The position numbers and the translations under genes were made by a program. Below, one piece after another: positions 50,562 to 59,599 of a stretch of DNA of 64,000 bases; the stretch's first letter is position 1, and each line of letters opens with the position of its first letter. The DNA comes from Melioribacteraceae bacterium (GTDB lineage Bacteria > Bacteroidota > Ignavibacteria > Ignavibacteriales > Melioribacteraceae), in contig JAEINS010000004.1 of the NCBI GenBank assembly GCA_016342755.1, forward strand, positions 124,001-188,000, in the 5' to 3' direction. The notes beneath the pieces are model-generated. The model had not been told where the DNA came from, did not search any database, and worked only from the letters and a program-made list of their open reading frames with translations.

Positions 50562-50583
50562 CATTTCGTTAATTAACGAAATG
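50562..50583 (+). promoter_or_regulatory. ArsR operator 1 (perfect 22-bp palindrome)
   Basis: Core ATTTCGTTAATTAACGAAAT (50563-50582) with C/G at the ends makes a perfect 22-bp palindrome, ending 10 bases before the arsR ATG. The TACATTTC just at its left edge may be a -7-like promoter box that bound ArsR would cover. A related site precedes arsC. Confidence 0.8.
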
Positions 50584-50593
50584 ATGTGTGCAA

Positions 50594-50938
50594 ATGGAAA
50601 ACTTAATAAAAGTATTTAAGGCTTTATCCGATTCAAACAGAGTTAGAATATTAAAGATGCTGGAAAACAAAGAATTGTGTGTTTGCGAAATTAGTGATGT
50701 ATTAAAGCTGGCAAATTCTACAGTTTCAAAACATTTATCAATATTGCGGGATGCTGGTTTAATTAGTGATTTTAAGGATGGTAAGTGGGTTAATTATAGT
50801 TTAAGAGTTTCACCAGAAAGTGTTTATACAAAAGAACTATTGTCTCTTATTAAAAATTGGCTGCCGGATAATTCTGTAATTAAAGCGGATAAAAGCAGTC
50901 TTGGTTCCTGTGACCGAAATAATATTTGTAAAAACTGA
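50594..50938 (+). CDS. arsR: ArsR-family arsenic-responsive repressor
   Basis: About 114 residues; dimeric winged-helix repressor released by As(III)/Sb(III). MENLIKVFKALSDSNRVRILKML opens the family fold, followed by the metal-site motif ELCVCEISDVL (Cys29 and Cys31, the alpha-3 site) and the recognition helix LANSTVSKHLSILRDAGLI. Two more Cys sit near the C-terminus (SCDRNNIC) and could form a second or third ligand. I start at ATG 50594; GTG 50588 is in frame. First gene of the seven-gene arsenic operon, with its own perfect operator. Confidence 0.92.
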   Translation: MENLIKVFKALSDSNRVRILKMLENKELCVCEISDVLKLANSTVSKHLSILRDAGLISDFKDGKWVNYSLRVSPESVYTKELLSLIKNWLPDNSVIKADKSSLGSCDRNNICKN

Positions 50939-50952
50939 ATATTTGAATATAC

Positions 50953-50972
50953 ATTTCGACAAATAGCGAAAT
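50953..50972 (+). promoter_or_regulatory. ArsR operator 2 (upstream of arsC)
   Basis: ATTTCG and CGAAAT enclose ACAAATAG, giving ATTTCGACAAATAGCGAAAT; it matches operator 1 in both half-sites and length but not in the centre. It lies in the 54-bp arsR-arsC gap, again preceded by TACATTTC, so it may be a second ArsR-controlled promoter for arsC onward. Confidence 0.65.
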
Positions 50973-50992
50973 ATAATTTGAAGGAATAAATT

Positions 50993-51418
50993 ATGAAAAC
51001 GAAAATCTTAATACTTTGTACCGGCAATTCATGCAGAAGTCAAATGGCCGAAGGATTTCTAAATACATTAAGTGAAAATATAGAAGCATTTTCTGCCGGG
51101 ACAAAACCGGCTGAACAGGTTAATCCCTTTGCAATAAAAGCAATGAACGAAGTTGGAATAGATTTAAGTTCAAACAAACCTGAACACACAGATGCTTATA
51201 TAAATGAGTCATTCGATTATGTAATAACAGTTTGCGGAAACGCCCAAGAAAATTGTCCGGTTTTTTTAGGTGATGTTAAAGAGCAGCTGCATATTGGTTT
51301 TGATGACCCGGCAGACGCAACAGGAACGGATGAAGAAATTATGAGTGAGTTTAGAAGAGTTAGAGATGAAATTGAAAGAGATTTTAAAAAGTTTTACGAG
51401 GAAAGGATTAAAGGATAA
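50993..51418 (+). CDS. arsC: Arsenate reductase, thioredoxin-coupled (low-MW phosphatase type)
   Basis: A 141-residue reductase turning arsenate into arsenite. The P-loop CTGNSCR (Cys9 to Arg15) is the CX5R nucleophile motif, and the two resolving cysteines lie in VITVCGNAQENCP, as in the S. aureus-type thioredoxin-linked ArsC. The closing FDDPADATGTDEE block is typical. Its reductant could be the cytosolic thioredoxin pool or the mini-thioredoxin encoded four genes later. AAGGA precedes the ATG. Confidence 0.94.
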   Translation: MKTKILILCTGNSCRSQMAEGFLNTLSENIEAFSAGTKPAEQVNPFAIKAMNEVGIDLSSNKPEHTDAYINESFDYVITVCGNAQENCPVFLGDVKEQLHIGFDDPADATGTDEEIMSEFRRVRDEIERDFKKFYEERIKG

Positions 51419-51424
51419 ACAGAA

Positions 51425-52456
51425 ATGTCGAAAAAACGCCTGTCATTTTTAGATAGATATTTAACACTCTGGATCTTTGCCGCGATGTTTGTCGGAGTTG
51501 GTTCTGGATATCTGTTACCAAGGATAGTTGATTTCTGGAATTCATTTCAAAGCGGAACAACTAACATTCCAATTGCAATTGGACTAATTGTAATGATGTA
51601 TCCGCCACTTGCTAAAGTTAAGTACGAAGAACTCGGTGATATATTTAAGAACACTAAAATTTTAGGTCTATCATTAGTTCAAAATTGGGTAATTGGTCCT
51701 ATTCTTATGTTCTTATTAGCTATTCTGTTTTTGCAGGACTATCCCCATTATATGGCGGGTTTAATATTAATCGGACTTGCCAGATGTATTGCTATGGTTA
51801 TTGTATGGAATGATCTTGCCGATGGAGACAGAGAATATGCTGCTGGTTTAGTAGCCTTTAATTCAATTTTCCAGGTTTTGTTTTTCTCAGTTTACGCATA
51901 TTTATTTCTAACATATTTGCCTGGTCTTTTAGGATTACAAACCTTTGCGGTTAATATTACAATAGGTGAAATAGCTGAAAGTGTTTTAATCTATTTAGGA
52001 ATTCCATTTTTTGCGGGAATGATCACACGTTTTTCTCTTCTTAAACTAAAGGGAGACAATTGGTATCAAAAAGTCTTCGTTCCAAAAATTAGCCCGTTAA
52101 CACTAATTGCGCTGCTTTTTACAATTTTTGTAATGTTTTCTCTTAAAGGAGAAGCGATTGTAAAAATACCATTTGATGTAATTAGAATAGCAATTCCGCT
52201 GGTCATCTATTTTACGATAATGTTTTTCGTTTCATTTTTTATGAGTAAAAAAGTTGGAGCCGATTATAAAAAAAGTGTTACGCTTTCATTTACTGCGGCC
52301 AGCAACAATTTTGAATTAGCGATAGCTGTTGCAATAGCTGTTTTTGGTATAAACTCCGGTGAAGCATTTGCGGCGGTTATAGGTCCGCTTGTGGAAGTCC
52401 CGGTTTTAATAGCACTTGTAAATGCAGCTTTATGGATTAGAAAAAAATATTTTTAG
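51425..52456 (+). CDS. acr3: ACR3-family arsenite efflux permease
   Basis: A 343-residue arsenite/proton antiporter of the bile/arsenite/riboflavin transporter superfamily with ten membrane helices. Diagnostic parts: [43 protein letters not shown], the essential Cys in [19 protein letters not shown], and [19 protein letters not shown] with the conserved Asn-Asn-Phe-Glu of the discontinuous helix. It exports the As(III) made by ArsC. It follows arsC by 6 bp. Confidence 0.95.
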
Positions 52457-52524
52457 TTATAATAAATTTACAATTTTCACACTGAGATTAGTTGAAGTGT
52501 GGCATTTTACTCTACGGAAAAATT

Positions 52525-53538
52525 ATGAAAAAGTTAAGTTTAATATTATTGTCATTACCAGTATGGATTCTACTCTATTTTAATTTAGAATCAATTACCG
52601 ATTTTCTAATTTACAATTTATTAGGAATGGAAAAGGGAACACATCTAACAGAAACAGTCTGGTTCTTTGTTTTCGAAGTTCCTAAGGTTTTGCTCCTATT
52701 AGTATTGATAGTATTCGGAATCGGAATTATCAGAACATATTTTTCGCCGGAACGGACAAGAAAATTGCTTGGCGGAAAAAGAGAGTTTTGGGGAAATATT
52801 CTTTCAGCTAATTTGGGAATTGTAACTCCATTCTGTTCTTGTTCAGCTATACCTTTGTTTTTAGGATTTGTTGAAGCGGGAATTCCATTAGGTGTTACTT
52901 TCTCATTTTTAATTGCTGCGCCAATGGTAAACGAAGTTGCCATCGTTTTACTCTTTGGATTATTCGGGTGGGAAACAGCAGCTCTTTATTTAGGAACAGG
53001 ATTGCTGATCGCGATTATAAGCGGATGGGTAATTGGTAAATTAAAACTTGAACGTTACCTTGAAGACTGGGTAAAGAACATCGAGAAAAAAGATAATATA
53101 GAATACAATGAAATTAAATATTCATTTGAACAAAGACTGGACCTGGGAATTGATGCAGTAAGAGAAATAGTAGGAAAAGTATGGCTCTATGTTGTAATTG
53201 GTATAGCTGTCGGAGCCGGAGTTCACGGATATGTGCCGCAAAACTTTTTGGCAGAAATGATGGGCAAATCTGCATGGTGGTCGGTTCCAGCCGCAGTATT
53301 ACTTGGTATTCCTATGTACTCAAACGCGGCCGGCATTGTTCCAATTGTTCAGGCTTTAATTGGCAAAGGTGCTGCTCTGGGAACAGCTTTAGCGTTTATG
53401 ATGTCTGTAATCGCTTTATCACTGCCGGAAATGATTATACTTAAAAAAGTTTTAAAACTGCCATTAATACTGACTTTCATTGGTGTTGTTGGCTCAGGAA
53501 TAATATTAGTCGGGTTTATATTTAATTTAATTTATTAA
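52525..53538 (+). CDS. ArsP-like/DUF318 permease
   Basis: About 337 residues with eight or more membrane helices in two halves. The family motif TPFCSCSAIPLFLGFVEAGIPLGVTFSFLIAAPMVNEVA (about 92-130) is present, with its Cys-Ser-Cys, and repeats in the second half as GIPMYSNAAGIVPIVQALIGKGAALGTALAFMMSVIALSLPEM. ArsP members export trivalent organoarsenicals; other members are of unknown substrate. Its place directly after acr3 supports an arsenic role. ATG 52525 with GGA upstream is chosen over a TTG 11 codons earlier. Confidence 0.85.
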   Translation: MKKLSLILLSLPVWILLYFNLESITDFLIYNLLGMEKGTHLTETVWFFVFEVPKVLLLLVLIVFGIGIIRTYFSPERTRKLLGGKREFWGNILSANLGIVTPFCSCSAIPLFLGFVEAGIPLGVTFSFLIAAPMVNEVAIVLLFGLFGWETAALYLGTGLLIAIISGWVIGKLKLERYLEDWVKNIEKKDNIEYNEIKYSFEQRLDLGIDAVREIVGKVWLYVVIGIAVGAGVHGYVPQNFLAEMMGKSAWWSVPAAVLLGIPMYSNAAGIVPIVQALIGKGAALGTALAFMMSVIALSLPEMIILKKVLKLPLILTFIGVVGSGIILVGFIFNLIY

Positions 53539-53550
53539 AAGGAGATAAAA

Positions 53551-53790
53551 ATGATAGTTAAAGTATTGGGAACCGGATGCAAGAAATGTCAAAATCTTGA
53601 AACAAAAGTTAAAGAAGTTATTGCTAAAAACGATGTTAAAGCTGAAGTAGAAAAAGTTCAGGAAATTGCTGACATAATGAAATACAATGTAATGATGACA
53701 CCTGCTTTAGTTATAAATGAAAAAGTTGTTAGCACTGGTGTAATTCCAAAAGATGATGAAATTTTAACATGGCTGAAAGAGGGAAAATGA
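53551..53790 (+). CDS. Mini-thioredoxin (redox-active disulfide protein 2 family)
   Basis: A 79-residue glutaredoxin/thioredoxin-like cytosolic protein: MIVKVLGTGCKKCQNLETKVKEV with the CKKC active site at residues 10-13, a cis-Pro in MMTPALVINEKVV, and a short GVIP...EILTWL end. This is the MTH895/TM0996-like group often found next to DUF318 permeases. Probable thiol donor for the arsenic operon. AAGGAG precedes the ATG; its stop overlaps the start of the next gene (ATGA). Confidence 0.88.
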   Translation: MIVKVLGTGCKKCQNLETKVKEVIAKNDVKAEVEKVQEIADIMKYNVMMTPALVINEKVVSTGVIPKDDEILTWLKEGK

Positions 53791-54266
53791 AAAAGTTAAC
53801 TGTAGTTTTTTTTGCTCTTATTTTAGTTTTAACTGCTTGCGGTAAAAATGGAAATGTAAAAGAAGAATTAGTAACAAAAGAAGGTCATGATGTAGTGAAA
53901 TCGGAATGTTGTTCAGATTTAATTAAAACAGCAGAATCCGATTGCTGTGATGAAAAAATTACAGAAGGCGCAAAAGCAAAAGTTACATTTGTAGAACTTG
54001 GCTCTGTAAACTGCATTCCATGTAAAAAAATGCAGCCTGTTATGGAAGCCATTGAAAAGAAATATGGCGATCAGATAGAAGTAGTATTCCACGATGTTTG
54101 GAAACCTGACGAAAAGAAATATGCCGAGCAATATAAAATATCTTTAATTCCTACTCAGGTTTTTTTAGATGAAAACGGAAAAGAATTTCACCGACATGAA
54201 GGATTTTACCCGGAAGAAGAAATAAATAAAATCTTAAGCTCAAAAGGTCTTAAAGCGGGTAATTAA
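53787..54266 (+). CDS. Thioredoxin-like lipoprotein with vicinal cysteine pairs
   Basis: 159 residues. A lipoprotein signal (VVFFALILVLTAC, lipid Cys18), a linker with two vicinal pairs, Cys41-Cys42 (SECCSD) and Cys53-Cys54 (SDCCDE), then a thioredoxin fold with active site NCIPC (Cys76, Cys79) and cis-Pro in SLIPTQVF. It would act on the outer side of the inner membrane or on the outer membrane. Vicinal Cys pairs bind As(III) in the unrelated chaperone ArsD, so an arsenic-binding linker is possible but is inference. Coupled to the preceding gene by a 4-bp overlap and abutting ccdA. Confidence 0.85.
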   Translation: MKKLTVVFFALILVLTACGKNGNVKEELVTKEGHDVVKSECCSDLIKTAESDCCDEKITEGAKAKVTFVELGSVNCIPCKKMQPVMEAIEKKYGDQIEVVFHDVWKPDEKKYAEQYKISLIPTQVFLDENGKEFHRHEGFYPEEEINKILSSKGLKAGN

Positions 54267-54968
54267 ATGATTGAAGACTTATTTACTCTATTATATGAAG
54301 CTATAAACGGTACTGTCTGGATAGCTTTTCTAGCTTCATTTGTCTGGGGAATTCTTTCTATAATTCTCTCACCATGTCATCTTTCAAGCATTCCTCTAGT
54401 TGTGGGATTTATCAGTTCACAAGGGAAAGTATCTGTCGGCAGAACATTTATTATTTCGTTGGTTTTTTCAGTCGGTATACTTTTAACAATTGCGTTAATA
54501 GGTATTATAACTGCTTCTCTTGGCAGATTGATGGGTGATGTTGGAGTTTACGGGAATTATTTTGTTGCAGCTATCTTTTTTGTTGTAGGATTATATTTAT
54601 TAGATGTTCTTAAGCTGGACTGGAATACAAGCGGATTGCGACAGACAAAAAAGAGAGGACTTTTAGCTGCTTTAATATTGGGACTGTTATTTGGAATAGC
54701 TTTGGGTCCTTGTACATTTGCTTATATGGCGCCGGTTTTAGGAGTTGTGTTTAAAACTTCTCAGACAAATTTACTTTTAGCAACTGCCTATTTATTAGCA
54801 TTTGGACTTGGGCATTGTGCGGTAATTGTCGGAGCCGGAACACTAGCAGGTAAAATTCAGACTTATCTTAACTGGACTGAAAGCTCAAATACTATTTTGT
54901 GGATAAAACGAACCTGCGGAATTTTGGTTATAATTGGCGGAGTTTATCTAGTTAGTATTACTTTTTAA
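54267..54968 (+). CDS. ccdA: CcdA-like transmembrane thiol electron transporter
   Basis: 233 residues, six to seven membrane helices. The two redox cysteines sit in ILSPCHLSSIPLVVGFI (TM1) and ALGPCTFAYMAPVLGVV (TM4), as in CcdA/DsbD-beta. It carries reducing equivalents from cytosolic thioredoxin to an extracytoplasmic thioredoxin, here most likely the lipoprotein encoded directly before it (the stop and start abut). No cytochrome c maturation genes are nearby, so the context favours a role in arsenic or thiol handling. Last gene before a strong terminator. Confidence 0.9.
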   Translation: MIEDLFTLLYEAINGTVWIAFLASFVWGILSIILSPCHLSSIPLVVGFISSQGKVSVGRTFIISLVFSVGILLTIALIGIITASLGRLMGDVGVYGNYFVAAIFFVVGLYLLDVLKLDWNTSGLRQTKKRGLLAALILGLLFGIALGPCTFAYMAPVLGVVFKTSQTNLLLATAYLLAFGLGHCAVIVGAGTLAGKIQTYLNWTESSNTILWIKRTCGILVIIGGVYLVSITF

Positions 54969-54972
54969 TTTT

Positions 54973-55011
54973 GTTAACCAATGGATTTCTCCATTGGTTA
55001 ACAGTTTTTTT
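54973..55011 (+). terminator. Strong intrinsic terminator of the arsenic operon
   Basis: GTTAACCAATGGA (54973-54985) and TCCATTGGTTAAC (54990-55002) pair perfectly over 13 bp with a 4-nt loop, followed by a run of seven T residues. The arms resemble the palindrome at 43679-43706. Confidence 0.92.
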
Positions 55012-55408
55012 ATTTCTCAGCTACACAAAATGTTACGTTATCTCCACTCCATGTATCTCCGGCTGGCAGAACATCATCAAAAAAACTTAAGCTTTTAAAT
55101 GAATACCCTTTAAGTTCATTTCTTAAGTCATTATCCGAGAAAAAGTGAGTCCAGAAGCGGTAAATTTCAGTGTTATCATTTTGATCAATTATAATGTGCT
55201 GAAACAACACTACTTTATTTTCCTTGTAAAAAAATGATTCTGATAAACCTATGTATGGCTGATCTTTCCAAAATCCCGATTCAGTAACTTCCCAGTTTTT
55301 AGGAGCAATTTTGTCCTCAAGATTTTTATCGTTCATTGCATCAAATATTAAACGCCCGTCAGGCTTCAGAACATTATCTATTTTTTTTATCAATTCATTT
55401 ATATTCAT
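55010..55408 (-). CDS. C-terminal half of a SAM-dependent methyltransferase (probable remnant)
   Basis: 132 residues beginning MNINELIKKIDNVLKPDGRLIFDAMN, which corresponds to the middle of class I methyltransferases (the 'LKPGGxxxFD' strand), followed by the usual second half (YRFWTHFFSDNDLRNELKGYSFKSLSFFDDV). The SAM-binding GxGxG half of about 110 residues is missing and not found just upstream. AAGGA lies upstream of this ATG, so a short protein could still be made, but it cannot be a working methyltransferase on its own. Best read as a 5'-truncated pseudogene. Confidence 0.6.
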   Translation of the reverse strand: MNINELIKKIDNVLKPDGRLIFDAMNDKNLEDKIAPKNWEVTESGFWKDQPYIGLSESFFYKENKVVLFQHIIIDQNDNTEIYRFWTHFFSDNDLRNELKGYSFKSLSFFDDVLPAGDTWSGDNVTFCVAEK

Positions 55409-55563
55409 TTTATTATCCTTGTGTTTCAATAGAGTCTTCTTTTATATTCCTAAATATAAAACTGCAATTAGAAAATATCTCTATTATTAAATTTGTAATT
55501 GAATTTGGGTTTTTCAAATAGATAAACTCCACCTAAGTGGGAAGTTTACTATTTAAATTTAGG

Positions 55564-55581
55564 ATTCTTCTTTTGAAGAAT
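55564..55581. repeat. ATTCTTC hairpin downstream of GH9
   Basis: ATTCTTC-TTTT-GAAGAAT, a perfect 7-bp stem, 92 bp past the GH9 stop on the minus strand. No T-run follows; a weak terminator at best. The rest of 55430-55672 shows nothing coding. Confidence 0.35.
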
Positions 55582-55672
55582 GTTAGATATGTAAATTACT
55601 TTTTCATGACAAAACAAATATATAAAAATTTATTCAGATCACAATAAGATCAATAATTTTCTGTGATATAAA

Positions 55673-58600
55673 TTATTTTAATAGCAGCATTTTTTGTGAA
55701 CTGCTGAAAGCTCCGGCCCGGATTGAATAGATATAAACACCGCTTGCTAAATTTTTTGCGTTAAATGTTATTTCATATCCACCGGCATTTTTGGTTTCGT
55801 CGACCAATGTATCAACTAAATTTCCAAGAATATCGTATACACAAATTTTTACTTTTGATACTTTAGGGATATCATATTTTATTTTACAGCTAGGATTAAA
55901 CGGATTTGGATAATTGTAATAAAGTTTATAATCGTTTGGAAGCCGGGCAATATTATTTACACTTGTCGGGTCTTCTGATTTGCCCAAATATATATCATCA
56001 ATATAAACACTCATTTCTCCAACATTAACACCGTTTGTTTTAAACGTAACTCCAAATGATTGAACAGAGGAACCCTGAACACTTTCCGGGATATTAAGAG
56101 TAACTTCATTCCAATCGTTACCCTTTAGATCTTTGAAAGCAAAAGTTTCACTAATCCACTGCCATCCGGTGTGCATTAAATAATTTTGAATAATTCCGTT
56201 CTGTGTTGTATCTCTATTATTAACGGCTATCGCAGAATCAACTAGTTCTTGTGGAACCCATATATTGTAAGTTAAAGAATTAACATTATTATCTAAAGAT
56301 CCATTTCTTCTTAGTGCATTTTCAGTAGCGGCATTAAAATTACCTTCTATTTTATAACTGAATGAACCGCTTTTTGCAATAGCATCAGATTGACTTGCTG
56401 AAGGATTTCCGCCAGTACCACTAAAATCTTCTACACTCCAGTCATCAAATTGTGCGGCAGTCTCAAAATCATAATCAGCAGGAGCAGCTGCAATTTTATA
56501 TATAATATCATCTATATAAACACTGCTTTCGCCAACACCGGCATTTTCAATATTAAAAGTAAGTCCTGTTTCAACAATTGTAGAATTTATAACATCATCC
56601 GGTATTGTAAATGAAATCTTATTCCACTCATCACCCTGAAGGTCATACAGATCAACCCATTTACTTCTCCAGTCCCATCCGGTATGCATTAAATAATTCT
56701 GTATACCACCGGCCAGTGCCGAATCAACGGCCGCTGCTGCTTTTGATGAATCAACAAGTTCCTGGGGAATCCAGACGTAATAAATTATTGATTCAATATT
56801 TTCTGTCATTGCACCGGCCCGCTTAAATACTAAATCAGCACCAGTAATAAAATTACCACTCAGTTTTAGACTATTAAAACCATTAGTGGCTTTTGCTGAA
56901 GTTATAGACAGAGAAGGCACTCCGCCTTCTCCCCAATTGTCCACATTCCAGTCATCCATCTGTCCCGGATTTTCAAAACCATAATCAGCATCCTGATTTA
57001 CGGTATTTGCAAGAATATTAATCTTTACTGTATCTGTTGCTTTTTCGCCATTGGCATCTTCTACTTCAAGAATTATTTCATAATTACCTATTTCTAATTC
57101 GATAACAGGATTTTTTTCAGTGGATATTACTTCACCATTTAGAGTCCATTTGTAGCTTACAATATTACCGTTGCTTGTAAAACTTTTTGATCCGCTTAGG
57201 TTAACTTTTTCTTTCCCACTATCATCTTCATCAACTATTCTCTGATCCTGACCGGCATCTGCAATTAAAACATCGGTTGCAGCTCCGCCTGTTTTCGAAA
57301 GAGCGTATAGATAAGAATATAAAAGAGTTTTTCCCCGCATAGTCTGACGTGGAGTAAATTCGGAATGTGCCCACATATGCCTTGTGTTTATATATTTTGA
57401 AGCATGCGGCCATTGTTTATAGTCAGGATAAAACTTAACCAGTACTTTCTCCGGATTTCCACCAGCCATACTGCCTCCCCATCCTTCTGTATTTAAGTAA
57501 GGAGTATGTCCCGGATGCAGACCGGGAGAACCATCATCTCTTCCGGATGTATAACAGTTTTCAATACTTCTCTTGTTTTCCAGTTCGGTTGTAGCCGTTG
57601 TCATTTGTATCATGTTAAGCGGATTTCTTCCAAGTCCCCAGTCGGCTTCAAGAAGCAGTGCATCTAAGAAGGTTACTTTTTCAGATGCATTATCCGTTAA
57701 CGCATGAGCTAAAATAGTTCTAGGCATATCCTGACTTGACTGCCACCATGCATTTTCGCTGCTATATCCACGACGTGATGGTCTTTTATTAACGTTATCA
57801 GATTCTTTACTCTTGGCTTTGGCGACTATTGCTTCCTTTATATTATTATGTAGATCTGGATAATTTATTGTTCTTTTAGAAAGTAAATATGCGGCTAAAC
57901 CCCATATCTGATTATATGTATCCTGCTGATAAAAACTGGATGTCGGGGTAGTTACAACACAATCATTATTTATAACATCTTCATAAACAGTTTCGCCAGT
58001 AAGATTATAAAGATACGATGCAGCCATCATTTTATAATCAACTCCCCTTACACCTTCCATTTTTGTGGTTAACATTTGGTCTGATAAGTTGCTGGCATAA
58101 TTATAGGCAATAATTGCTGAATCTTGATATTCCGCTTTAAGATCTGTGTGACCGGATATTTGGAAGCAGTAAGCAAGTATAGAACTGTTAAGAGCGTTTG
58201 CCCATGCTGCCATTGCAGTATTACCAGCCTGATACATTTTATTACCATCCGGATTTGTGATTCCATGAGAGTAACCTTTATTGTAACGCAGATTTAACCA
58301 GAAATCAACTTCGTTTCTCGCTTCATCTAATATATCGGGTATTCCATTTCCGCTTTCTGCAATTCTTAAATCATCATCATCTAATGCACCATCTGTTATT
58401 AAATATGCAAGACACAGATCATAAATATTAACAACATGTCCTAAATGCCTGTCCCAGTCCAATGCATCACTATGCCCGCCTATGGCTCTTGGGTTTGTAG
58501 GACTGCCAGCCAATTTATATGCCGCCCATGCAGCAGGTTGATCCCATTTATCACCTCCGGCAAGTGAATTCCAGTTAGAGTGATAAGGATGCATCTCTGT

Positions 58601-59599
58601 TACATAAACTTTAAAGCTGGAAGGATCCTGATCCTGAATATATAATGGTCTTCTTGGAACAGGAGTCATATCAAGATTATCCTGACCAATTCTCATATAA
58701 AAATAACCCATTACAGAAAGTTTATATGGATCGTGATAAATATCATCTTTTATTTCAAAGTCTTCACTGCATCCAATACCTTCAACTGCTACTCTAAAAG
58801 TTCCGGTTTGATTAAATCCTGTAAAATCTACGTTCCAGACATCAGATCCGGTTAAGTTATGATTTTTTTCAGTCTTATTTTTCATCCAGAATGAAACAGA
58901 ACCAATCAGTTCAGACTGTTTTGTATCAACATTGTAGATATAAACATCATTCCCAAGAAAATCTGAGTAATCTCTATTACCACCGTCTCCTAAGAAATGA
59001 TATAAATCTGCCGACTTTACTCTTGAACTACTCATATAACCAACAAGATTAGTATGAATTGCTTCTGACGGATTATTAAAAATATCAAAAGTTAAGCTGT
59101 GTGTTGTTTTATCAGACTTAATTTTATCATTGATTTCAATTGTATAGGTTTTGTTTTCTTTAAGAGAATTTGGCAGTTTCAGATAGATAAAATGCTCGTT
59201 TGTATAATCAAAAATCCAGTCATCTGAGCCCCATTGTTTTTGCGACATTCCGTTCACCCTGGATTTTCTATAAACTATTTCGGGGAAGACACCCGCAGAA
59301 CCAAAATTGCTGTCGTCATCTGATTTAATTACCCAGTTACTAACGTCGGCTACATCAGATAAACTTAATGGGGAACCATAATATACAGCAAATGAGTTTT
59401 CTGCTTCAGAATGATGACCATGAAAAGCGTTAACACCAAGTCCGTCATCAACAAAATCTACAATTCCATCTTTGAAATTGAGCATAATATAATCTTTATC
59501 AACAACTTTAACCGTATCCAGCTTAGTTGCAGTTATTGTGTTCGAAATAATAAAAAATATGAAAAGAGTTAAGATAACCTTTGTATAATTCGTGCCCAT
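55673..59599 (-). CDS. Large secreted glycoside hydrolase family 9 enzyme with T9SS sorting domain
   Basis: 1308 residues. Signal peptide; a beta-sandwich N-domain before the catalytic part (about 190-290, HTNLVGYMSSSRVKSADLY, GTFRVAVEG); a GH9 (alpha/alpha)6 barrel at about 295-790 with GGHSDALDWDRHLGH (Asp pair), SGNGIPDILDEARNEVDFWL, GLGRNPLNMI and HSEFTPRQTM (candidate acid Glu); a PKD domain at about 800-885; two homologous domains of about 165 residues, each with 'NYLMHTGW' and 'VYIDDI'; and a C-terminal NYPNPFNP sorting domain. Several catalytic motifs deviate from classic endoglucanases (GGHSDALDW for GGWHDAGDY). AAGGAG precedes the ATG. Probably acts on beta-glucan-type polymers. Confidence 0.88.
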   Translation of the reverse strand: MGTNYTKVILTLFIFFIISNTITATKLDTVKVVDKDYIMLNFKDGIVDFVDDGLGVNAFHGHHSEAENSFAVYYGSPLSLSDVADVSNWVIKSDDDSNFGSAGVFPEIVYRKSRVNGMSQKQWGSDDWIFDYTNEHFIYLKLPNSLKENKTYTIEINDKIKSDKTTHSLTFDIFNNPSEAIHTNLVGYMSSSRVKSADLYHFLGDGGNRDYSDFLGNDVYIYNVDTKQSELIGSVSFWMKNKTEKNHNLTGSDVWNVDFTGFNQTGTFRVAVEGIGCSEDFEIKDDIYHDPYKLSVMGYFYMRIGQDNLDMTPVPRRPLYIQDQDPSSFKVYVTEMHPYHSNWNSLAGGDKWDQPAAWAAYKLAGSPTNPRAIGGHSDALDWDRHLGHVVNIYDLCLAYLITDGALDDDDLRIAESGNGIPDILDEARNEVDFWLNLRYNKGYSHGITNPDGNKMYQAGNTAMAAWANALNSSILAYCFQISGHTDLKAEYQDSAIIAYNYASNLSDQMLTTKMEGVRGVDYKMMAASYLYNLTGETVYEDVINNDCVVTTPTSSFYQQDTYNQIWGLAAYLLSKRTINYPDLHNNIKEAIVAKAKSKESDNVNKRPSRRGYSSENAWWQSSQDMPRTILAHALTDNASEKVTFLDALLLEADWGLGRNPLNMIQMTTATTELENKRSIENCYTSGRDDGSPGLHPGHTPYLNTEGWGGSMAGGNPEKVLVKFYPDYKQWPHASKYINTRHMWAHSEFTPRQTMRGKTLLYSYLYALSKTGGAATDVLIADAGQDQRIVDEDDSGKEKVNLSGSKSFTSNGNIVSYKWTLNGEVISTEKNPVIELEIGNYEIILEVEDANGEKATDTVKINILANTVNQDADYGFENPGQMDDWNVDNWGEGGVPSLSITSAKATNGFNSLKLSGNFITGADLVFKRAGAMTENIESIIYYVWIPQELVDSSKAAAAVDSALAGGIQNYLMHTGWDWRSKWVDLYDLQGDEWNKISFTIPDDVINSTIVETGLTFNIENAGVGESSVYIDDIIYKIAAAPADYDFETAAQFDDWSVEDFSGTGGNPSASQSDAIAKSGSFSYKIEGNFNAATENALRRNGSLDNNVNSLTYNIWVPQELVDSAIAVNNRDTTQNGIIQNYLMHTGWQWISETFAFKDLKGNDWNEVTLNIPESVQGSSVQSFGVTFKTNGVNVGEMSVYIDDIYLGKSEDPTSVNNIARLPNDYKLYYNYPNPFNPSCKIKYDIPKVSKVKICVYDILGNLVDTLVDETKNAGGYEITFNAKNLASGVYIYSIRAGAFSSSQKMLLLK

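What the first reader, a model, noticed from the sequence alone, without database searches (positions are those of the whole stretch)
50562..55011. Arsenic operon extended by a transmembrane thiol relay
Seven tightly packed genes with one strong terminator: arsR, arsC, acr3, ArsP-like permease, mini-thioredoxin (CKKC), thioredoxin lipoprotein and CcdA. Reduction and efflux of inorganic arsenic are standard. The addition of CcdA plus a lipoprotein thioredoxin implies reducing power is sent outside the inner membrane. It might keep a periplasmic arsenic-binding thiol reduced, or reduce pentavalent organoarsenicals before transport. Related ars clusters with thioredoxin and CcdA genes exist, from memory, in Bacteroides, so it may not be wholly new.
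Basis: partly seen in the sequence, partly recalled or inferred. Interest (0 to 1): 0.6.

Follow-up and report, generated by a model that had tools for sequence, protein, structure and literature searches.

The report
Arsenic operon with cross-membrane thiol relay
This is a real arsenic-resistance gene cluster that also carries a small machine which probably passes reducing power out through the inner membrane; clusters of this kind have been described before, and what the exported reducing power acts on is still unknown.

Summary
In detail: seven same-strand genes (arsR, arsC, acr3, ArsP-type permease, ArsE/MTH895 mini-thioredoxin, secreted thioredoxin, CcdA-type protein) lie between an ArsR-like operator and a terminator; the assembly has two exact operator copies, flanking arsR. 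The arsenic link is not chance. Intact thioredoxin and CcdA orthologs occur in the same 38 of 116 genomes (own included). In named relatives from many phyla, ars genes lie nearby in 48 of 48 loci of 12 kb or more, against 0 of 20 DsbD control loci; the steadiest companions are ArsE (46) and ArsP-type permeases (44), not Acr3 (36) or ArsC (21). [quoted passage not shown] The CcdA here is not ArsG (55 bits; cut-off 200) but a sister subfamily with two further, nearly invariant cysteines. Against an arsenic-only role: 7 of 17 loci in another set show no ars gene (5 cut by contig ends), and a split-Soret cytochrome is commoner in relay genomes (20 of 38 versus 13 of 78), though absent here. Best reading: a split-DsbD relay serving permease-linked arsenic detoxification; acceptor unknown.

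The parts
50563..50582 (.). palindromic ArsR-like operator ATTTCG-N8-CGAAAT, just before arsR
   Evidence: 0.04 expected in the window; one of two in the assembly; TTTCG-N8-CGAAA upstream of 31 of 37 arsR homologs
50588..50938 (+). arsR, ArsR/SmtB repressor with ELCVCE (recalled as the As(III)-site type)
   Evidence: (NF033788 90.6 bits, cut-off 55)
50953..50972 (.). second copy of the operator, between arsR and arsC
   Evidence: 11 of 37 arsR homologs also have one downstream
50993..51418 (+). arsC, arsenate reductase of the LMW-phosphatase type (CTGNSCRS, C-x6-C; recalled as thioredoxin-coupled)
   Evidence: TIGR02691 135.4, below cut-off 174.3; PF01451 75.4, cut-off 23.2
51425..52456 (+). 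acr3, arsenite efflux transporter
   Evidence: TIGR00832 457.6, cut-off 282.8
52525..53538 (+). ArsP_1-type permease with CSC motif (ATG at 52525; the ORF list gives an upstream TTG at 52492)
   Evidence: PF03773 249.7, cut-off 32.3; C104 and C106 invariant in the 20 proteins aligned
53551..53790 (+). arsE-like mini-thioredoxin (GCKKC), no signal peptide seen
   Evidence: TIGR00412 104.3, cut-off 62
53787..54266 (+). secreted thioredoxin, lipoprotein here (LTAC), CIPC active site, two CC pairs before the domain
   Evidence: CxxC in 38 of 38; the two CC pairs in 1 of 38; thioredoxins among solved structures
54267..54968 (+). CcdA-type membrane protein, PCHLS subfamily, C37/C149/C184/C217
   Evidence: 4 Cys in 38 of 38; best Foldseek match is CcdA 5vkv
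54971..55004 (+). intrinsic terminator

Best explanation
It is an arsenic-detoxification operon of ordinary core (ArsR control, ArsC reduction of arsenate, Acr3 export of arsenite) extended by a permease arm (ArsP-type permease plus ArsE) and a split DsbD. Electrons from the cell's thioredoxin system, perhaps through ArsE, cross the inner membrane on the cysteine pair of the CcdA-type protein and reduce the secreted thioredoxin, which then reduces something outside: thiols poisoned or oxidised by the exported arsenical, outward-facing thiols of the permease, or the arsenical itself. Shown: genes, families, operator sites, pairing, synteny, cysteine conservation. Inferred: that electrons flow, in which direction, that ArsE is a donor, that the arsenical is organic or inorganic, and what the acceptor is.
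For: Compact operon between ArsR-like operator and terminator. Thioredoxin and CcdA keep together: intact CcdA orthologs in 38 of 116 genomes and strong thioredoxin orthologs in the same 38 plus G006, where ccdA is also present but broken; in 37 loci the thioredoxin is the ORF before ccdA in 32 and one ORF away in 5, and ArsE directly precedes it in 33. Ars genes in 32 of 37 near-relative loci and 48 of 48 named loci of 12 kb or more, with ArsE 46, ArsP-type 44, Acr3 36, ArsC 21; 0 of 20 DsbD control loci. A thioredoxin of this kind passes 70 bits in 40 of the 48 and the other 8 have one at 59-70 bits just upstream of ccdA. Genomes with the relay have Acr3 above cut-off in 36 of 38 against 46 of 78 without it (Fisher p 2.9e-5, not corrected for kinship). 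Relay cysteines: thioredoxin CxxC 38 of 38; CcdA C37 and C149 in 38 of 38 and in 80 of 80 proteins from 79 named loci. The model's best Foldseek match is the electron transporter CcdA 5vkv, E 4.5e-3, probability 1.00. True ArsG loci have the same kinds of parts: a signal-bearing CxxC protein directly before a CcdA-like ArsG with two cysteines, 5 of 5.
Against: No expression or biochemical data. In a third set, 7 of 17 loci show no ars gene in the stretch fetched (5 of the 7 cut by a contig end), and one of them, L217, has no thioredoxin partner either in 16.5 kb. 17 of 37 loci carry at least one gene of a sigma-54 activator/split-Soret cytochrome module, as do all 5 without ars genes; the cytochrome is commoner in genomes with the relay (20 of 38) than without (13 of 78; Fisher p 1.3e-4), so the relay may serve more than arsenic. 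The plasmid copy in Sulfuricella has the pair beside an RND pump, with arsC some 6 kb away. The model is of moderate confidence (pLDDT 76.5), no PDB match reached E 0.001, its VIA Z for CcdA (5.9) is no better than for unrelated transporters, and Cys-Cys distances could not be measured.
Confidence: 0.58

Rival explanations
1. ArsEFG-like function in the published sense: ArsE and the thioredoxin (as ArsF) reduce an arsenical, and the CcdA-type protein (as ArsG) is the efflux permease for the product.
For: ArsE membership passes its cut-off. In true ArsG loci a CxxC protein directly precedes ArsG in 5 of 5, ArsE lies beside them in 4 of 5 (before in one, after in three) and an ArsP-type permease in 4 of 5. 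The literature lists ArsG among efflux transporters and ArsE and ArsF among genes giving resistance to organic arsenicals (PMC9144182, passages).
Against: The CcdA scores 55.2 against a cut-off of 200 for ArsG, while five true ArsG proteins found in 296 genomes of the phylum score 296-310; its cysteine motifs differ; cysteines invariant in the CcdA positions fit electron transfer better than transport (inference).
Confidence: 0.12
2. The redox genes only feed ArsC with electrons for arsenate reduction, as proposed in 2010.
For: ArsC is of the LMW-phosphatase type (recalled as thioredoxin-coupled) and stands in the operon; Castillo and Saier saw arsC in 7 of 8 such operons.
Against: ArsC is cytosolic, while the thioredoxin carries a signal peptide; ArsC passes the threshold in only 21 of 48 longer named loci (14 of 35 without the shared loci) and its cluster is in 17 of 37 near-relative loci, though 10 of the 37 have a second, weakly ArsC-like protein. 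The 2010 authors themselves doubted transmembrane flow for this reason. ArsE alone could still serve ArsC.
Confidence: 0.1
3. The relay is a general envelope redox or cytochrome-maturation unit that happens to sit in ars operons.
For: At least one gene of a split-Soret cytochrome/sigma-54 module in 17 of 37 loci, including all 5 without ars genes; the cytochrome in 20 of 38 relay genomes against 13 of 78 others; 7 of 17 loci of a third set without ars genes; CcdA proteins serve cytochrome c maturation (recalled).
Against: 48 of 48 longer named loci have ars genes against 0 of 20 DsbD controls; of the 5 near-relative loci without ars genes, 3 lie in genomes with an Acr3 gene 7-17 kb away on the same contig (G102, G065, G015); this genome has no split-Soret hit and keeps its own 594-aa-frame DsbD-type protein; 18 of 38 relay genomes lack the cytochrome.
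Confidence: 0.2

Closest known systems
[quoted passage not shown] passages read)
   Same: The same three kinds of redox gene in ars operons, 8 instances in 7 organisms, arsC present in 7 of 8.
   Different: The passages read propose service to ArsC and do not mention a CcdA subfamily, extra cysteines or a tie to ArsP; whether their CcdA proteins belong to the same subfamily was not checked.
ArsEFG (Chen, Zhang, Rosen 2019, doi 10.1021/acs.est.9b01187; seen only as a reference; biochemistry recalled)
   Same: ArsE family shared; a secreted CxxC protein directly before a CcdA-like membrane protein, mostly beside an ArsP-type permease (4 of 5 loci).
   Different: CcdA scores far below the ArsG cut-off and has different cysteine motifs; no ArsF-named family among the thioredoxin's hits; ArsE stands after ArsG in 3 of the 4 true loci that show it, before the thioredoxin here.
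DsbD / CcdA-ResA and ScsB-ScsC transmembrane thiol relays (functions recalled)
   Same: DsbD_TM family (PF02683), cysteine pair, periplasmic thioredoxin partner; ScsB-ScsC is also linked to metal stress.
   Different: Here separate genes inside an ars operon, with two additional conserved cysteines in the membrane protein.
SAO and Tso selenoprotein operons (PMC13188914, passages; primary papers not held)
   Same: Weak hits to SaoE (permease), TsoR, TsoX and TsoB.
   Different: All below cut-off; no selenocysteine codon needed in the window's genes.

Membership tests
ArsEFG cassette | ArsE: MTH895/ArsE family thioredoxin-like protein | tested here: met
   TIGR00412 104.3 bits, cut-off 62
ArsEFG cassette | ArsG equivalog NF040495 | tested here: not met
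   55.2 bits, cut-off 200; five members above cut-off in 296 genomes of the phylum score 296-310
ArsEFG cassette | ArsF family protein | tested here: inconclusive
   No family named ArsF among the thioredoxin's hits at E 0.001; whether the library has such a model was not checked
ArsEFG cassette | reduction and export of aromatic arsenicals | not testable with these tools
   needs bench work
CcdA/DsbD membrane electron transporter | DsbD_TM domain above cut-off | tested here: met
   PF02683 48.2, cut-off 27.1
CcdA/DsbD membrane electron transporter | two membrane cysteines in PC motifs | tested here: met
   C37 and C149 in 38 of 38 and 80 of 80 proteins
CcdA/DsbD membrane electron transporter | CcdA fold | tested here: inconclusive
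   Foldseek best 5vkv E 4.5e-3, probability 1.00; VIA Z 5.9, tied with unrelated transporters
CcdA/DsbD membrane electron transporter | electron transfer across the membrane | not testable with these tools
   needs redox-state assays
ArsP permease | PF03773 ArsP_1 above cut-off | tested here: met
   249.7, cut-off 32.3; NCBIfam SaoE 140.5 (cut-off 325) and SO_0444 95.1 (cut-off 300) not reached
ArsP permease | export of methylarsenite | not testable with these tools
   needs bench work; the family is broad
ars operon | ArsR, ArsC and Acr3 genes together | tested here: met
   ArsC is above its Pfam but below its NCBIfam equivalog cut-off
ars operon | induction by arsenic | not testable with these tools
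   needs expression data; only operator-like sites were found

The most novel reading that the evidence does not exclude
ArsEFG and the cassette found here are two branches of one principle: the CcdA-like member (including ArsG, now named an efflux permease) is not a pump but an electron conduit, and a secreted thioredoxin-like protein (ArsF or its counterpart here) does arsenic redox or thiol-repair chemistry outside the inner membrane in step with ArsP. In this subfamily a second conserved cysteine pair (C184, C217) would form a further relay or arsenic-sensing site.
Probability: 0.3. Interest if true: 0.6.

Novelty: new member of a known kind. Interest (0 to 1): 0.35.

Why it matters
If the relay reading is right, many uncultured bacteria treat arsenic partly outside the inner membrane, and the annotation of ArsG-like proteins as efflux pumps would need testing. 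The strong tie to ArsE and ArsP-type permeases rather than to arsenate reductase gives a concrete place to look for the acceptor.

Tried and rejected
Chance adjacency: rejected by the pairing and synteny counts. ArsG membership: rejected by score and motif. Lipoprotein anchoring as a defining feature: rejected, 8 of 38 by my eye on the N-termini printed (the script's own pattern also matched the active site in some rows, so its column is not used). Arsenic-binding CC pairs as a general feature: rejected, the window's two pairs are unique among 38 and L037 alone has another cysteine-rich stretch. Split-Soret cytochrome as the acceptor in this genome: not supported, no hit in G000, although the cytochrome is commoner in relay genomes. 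Sequence search of solved structures found nothing for the CcdA alignment (E up to 0.01) or the permease (E up to 0.1). VIA-align put CcdA 5vkv at Z 5.9 among unrelated transporters, so I lean on it little. Cys-Cys distances could not be measured: no model coordinates were found in the Python box. Searches for Sao/Tso and split-Soret literature gave one useful review. Limits of the control: the 20 DsbD loci come only from genomes that have the relay, 2 of them are under 12 kb (lengths), and in 5 (L195, L197, L203, L204, L205) the script itself did not recover the DsbD at its E limit, although one search had placed it there. On checking the draft I found the split-Soret association left out and a miscount of contig ends; I lowered the main reading from 0.60 to 0.58 and raised the general-redox rival from 0.18 to 0.20 for that reason.
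Full report
What is there. The window (G000:C30:124001-188000 of a 4.73 Mb assembly) holds seven genes on the + strand from 50588 to 54968: arsR, arsC, acr3, an ArsP_1-type permease, an ArsE/MTH895 mini-thioredoxin, a secreted thioredoxin and a CcdA-type membrane protein, closed by a 15-pair terminator.

Control. The palindrome ATTTCG-N8-CGAAAT stands directly before arsR and again between arsR and arsC: 2 in the window against 0.04 expected, and no third exact copy in the assembly (the backwards control pattern has 1). The core TTTCG-N8-CGAAA precedes 31 of 37 arsR homologs scoring 90 bits or more in the two locus sets, and 11 of these also have one just downstream of arsR (the two sets overlap). 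So the operon is plausibly under one arsenic-responsive repressor, with a second operator in front of the structural genes. ArsR carries ELCVCE, which I recall as the As(III) site of ArsR; induction is not shown.

The pair. Searching 116 genomes (own included) with the CcdA protein gives a gap between intact orthologs at 60% identity or more (38 genomes) and DsbD-like proteins mostly at 22-31%, apart from a few broken or partial copies. The thioredoxin domain at 130 bits or more is in those 38 genomes and in G006, where ccdA too is present but broken. In 37 loci around intact copies (window not counted) the thioredoxin is the ORF before ccdA in 32 and one ORF away in 5, and ArsE directly precedes the thioredoxin in 33. 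The distribution is patchy within genera (for example one of four g24 genomes), as for an accessory cassette.

The company it keeps. In those 37 loci (stretches of up to about 7.5 kb on each side, some cut by contig ends): ArsE 36, ArsP-type 28, Acr3 27, ArsR 27, ArsC 17, ArsM 13; at least one of ArsP, Acr3, ArsC, ArsM or the second ArsC-like family in 32. Of the 5 without, 3 lie in genomes with an Acr3 gene 7-17 kb away on the same contig (G102, G065, G015). A scan of named genomes returned at least 548 relatives, best 80 kept, with titles from Ignavibacteria, Planctomycetes, Verrucomicrobia, Gemmatimonadetes, Cloacimonadota, Calditrichota, KSB1, WOR-3, Aminicenantes, Elusimicrobia, Omnitrophota, Hydrogenedentes and others. 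Of the 48 loci of 12 kb or more, all 48 have an ars gene: ArsE 46, ArsP-type 44, thioredoxin 40, Acr3 36, ArsC 21, ArsM 10; the 8 without a thioredoxin at 70 bits have one at 59-70 bits just upstream of ccdA. Without the loci shared with the first set: ars 35 of 35, ArsE 34, ArsP-type 33, thioredoxin 27, Acr3 25, ArsC 14. In 20 control loci around DsbD of relay-bearing genomes no ars gene passed the thresholds. Genomes with the relay have Acr3 above cut-off in 36 of 38 cases, the others in 46 of 78 (Fisher p 2.9e-5; kinship not corrected).

Results against a purely arsenic role. In a third set of 17 loci, 13 of them more distant (CcdA 182-242 bits), 10 have an ars gene in the stretch fetched and 7 do not; five of those seven are cut by a contig end, and one, L217, has a shortened CcdA frame and no thioredoxin partner. 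In 17 of the 37 near-relative loci at least one gene of a module (sigma-54 activator, small protein, T9SS-tagged split-Soret cytochrome; NF047622 142 bits, cut-off 400) lies nearby; the activator is within two genes after ccdA in 13, and all 5 loci without ars genes have at least one module gene. The cytochrome is in 20 of 38 genomes with the relay and 13 of 78 without (Fisher p 1.3e-4), so there is a real association; but it is absent from the window's genome and from 18 relay genomes, so it is not a required partner. The one plasmid copy (Sulfuricella denitrificans pSCD, 54% identity) has the pair beside an RND efflux operon, with arsC about 6 kb and an arsenite methyltransferase about 7.5 kb away.

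The proteins. The CcdA-type protein keeps C37 (SPCHLSSIP) and C149 (GPCTFAYMAP) in 38 of 38 close relatives and 80 of 80 proteins from 79 named loci; C184 and C217 are in 38 of 38 and in 75 and 78 of 80; four more distant relatives (L163, L172, L174, L186) have only the first pair. Three ordinary CcdA proteins in the same phylum sample read SPCVLPIVP, and the five true ArsG proteins read SPCP(L/M)ATN and FCP(Y/T)SG, so this is a third, sister subfamily by motif and score; no tree was built. The AlphaFold model (pLDDT 76.5) has CcdA 5vkv as best Foldseek match (E 4.5e-3, probability 1.00, TM 0.51), but VIA-align does not separate it from unrelated transporters. The secreted thioredoxin has CxxC in 38 of 38 with a strongly conserved domain; lipid anchoring and the two CC pairs before the domain are features of this copy, not of the family. 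The permease keeps CSC in the 20 ArsP-type proteins aligned and in 28 of 29 near-relative ORFs.

Mechanism. The simplest reading is a DsbD cut into genes: cytosolic donor (cell thioredoxin or ArsE), membrane carrier (CcdA type), secreted acceptor thioredoxin. Because the steadiest neighbours are ArsE and ArsP-type permeases and not ArsC, I place the relay with the permease arm of the operon rather than with arsenate reduction. Direction, donor and final acceptor are inferred.

Prior work. Castillo and Saier (2010, PMC2963123; [quoted passage not shown] ArsEFG (Chen, Zhang and Rosen 2019) I saw only as a reference and in sentences of PMC9144182 that list ArsG among efflux transporters and ArsE and ArsF among organoarsenical resistance genes; its biochemistry is recalled. 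In five true ArsG loci of the phylum sample a CxxC protein with a signal peptide or lipobox (by eye; called ArsF by position) directly precedes ArsG in 5 of 5, ArsE is beside them in 4 of 5 and an ArsP-type permease in 4 of 5; ArsG keeps two cysteines in CcdA-like positions in 5 of 5. I found no paper on this CcdA subfamily in the searches; the library lacks most subscription journals. Verdict: real and arsenic-linked, but a member of a kind already described.

Noticed in passing
54885-55631; L074 6142-7285 (G000:C46): The tail of ccdA, the terminator and a convergent methyltransferase-like gene are duplicated on another contig (259 bp at 99%, 509 bp at 91% with gaps). The other copy has a 292-aa methyltransferase-like frame and only a remnant of ccdA; the window's copy of that gene (55010-55429) is a 139-aa frame lacking an internal stretch.
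   Followed up: partly
L158-L162: In five true ArsG loci the CxxC protein before ArsG has a signal peptide or lipobox (by eye) and ArsG has two cysteines in CcdA-like positions, which fits an electron conduit better than the present name 'efflux permease'.
   Followed up: partly
L034, L035, L037, L044, L045, L048, L049, L051, L054, L063: A recurring module near ccdA: PAS/sigma-54 activator with a cysteine-rich PAS region, a small protein without Pfam or NCBIfam hits, and a T9SS-tagged split-Soret cytochrome with C_GCAxxG_C_C domain. Associated with the relay at genome level; function unknown.
   Followed up: partly
L033-L037, L040, L043, L049, L056, L062: A second ArsC-like protein of about 208 aa lies downstream of ccdA in ten near-relative loci; the one tested matches TIGR02691 only weakly (53.6 bits, cut-off 174.3).
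   Followed up: no
L036 11156-12457 and similar: Two kinds of ArsP_1-type permease occur in these loci: about 340 aa as in the window, and about 430 aa with an insert; Castillo and Saier noted two such kinds.
   Followed up: no
55673-59599 (- strand): 1308-aa frame with a T9SS-like C-terminal tail (YNYPNPFNPS, by eye) near the operon, on the other strand.
   Followed up: no
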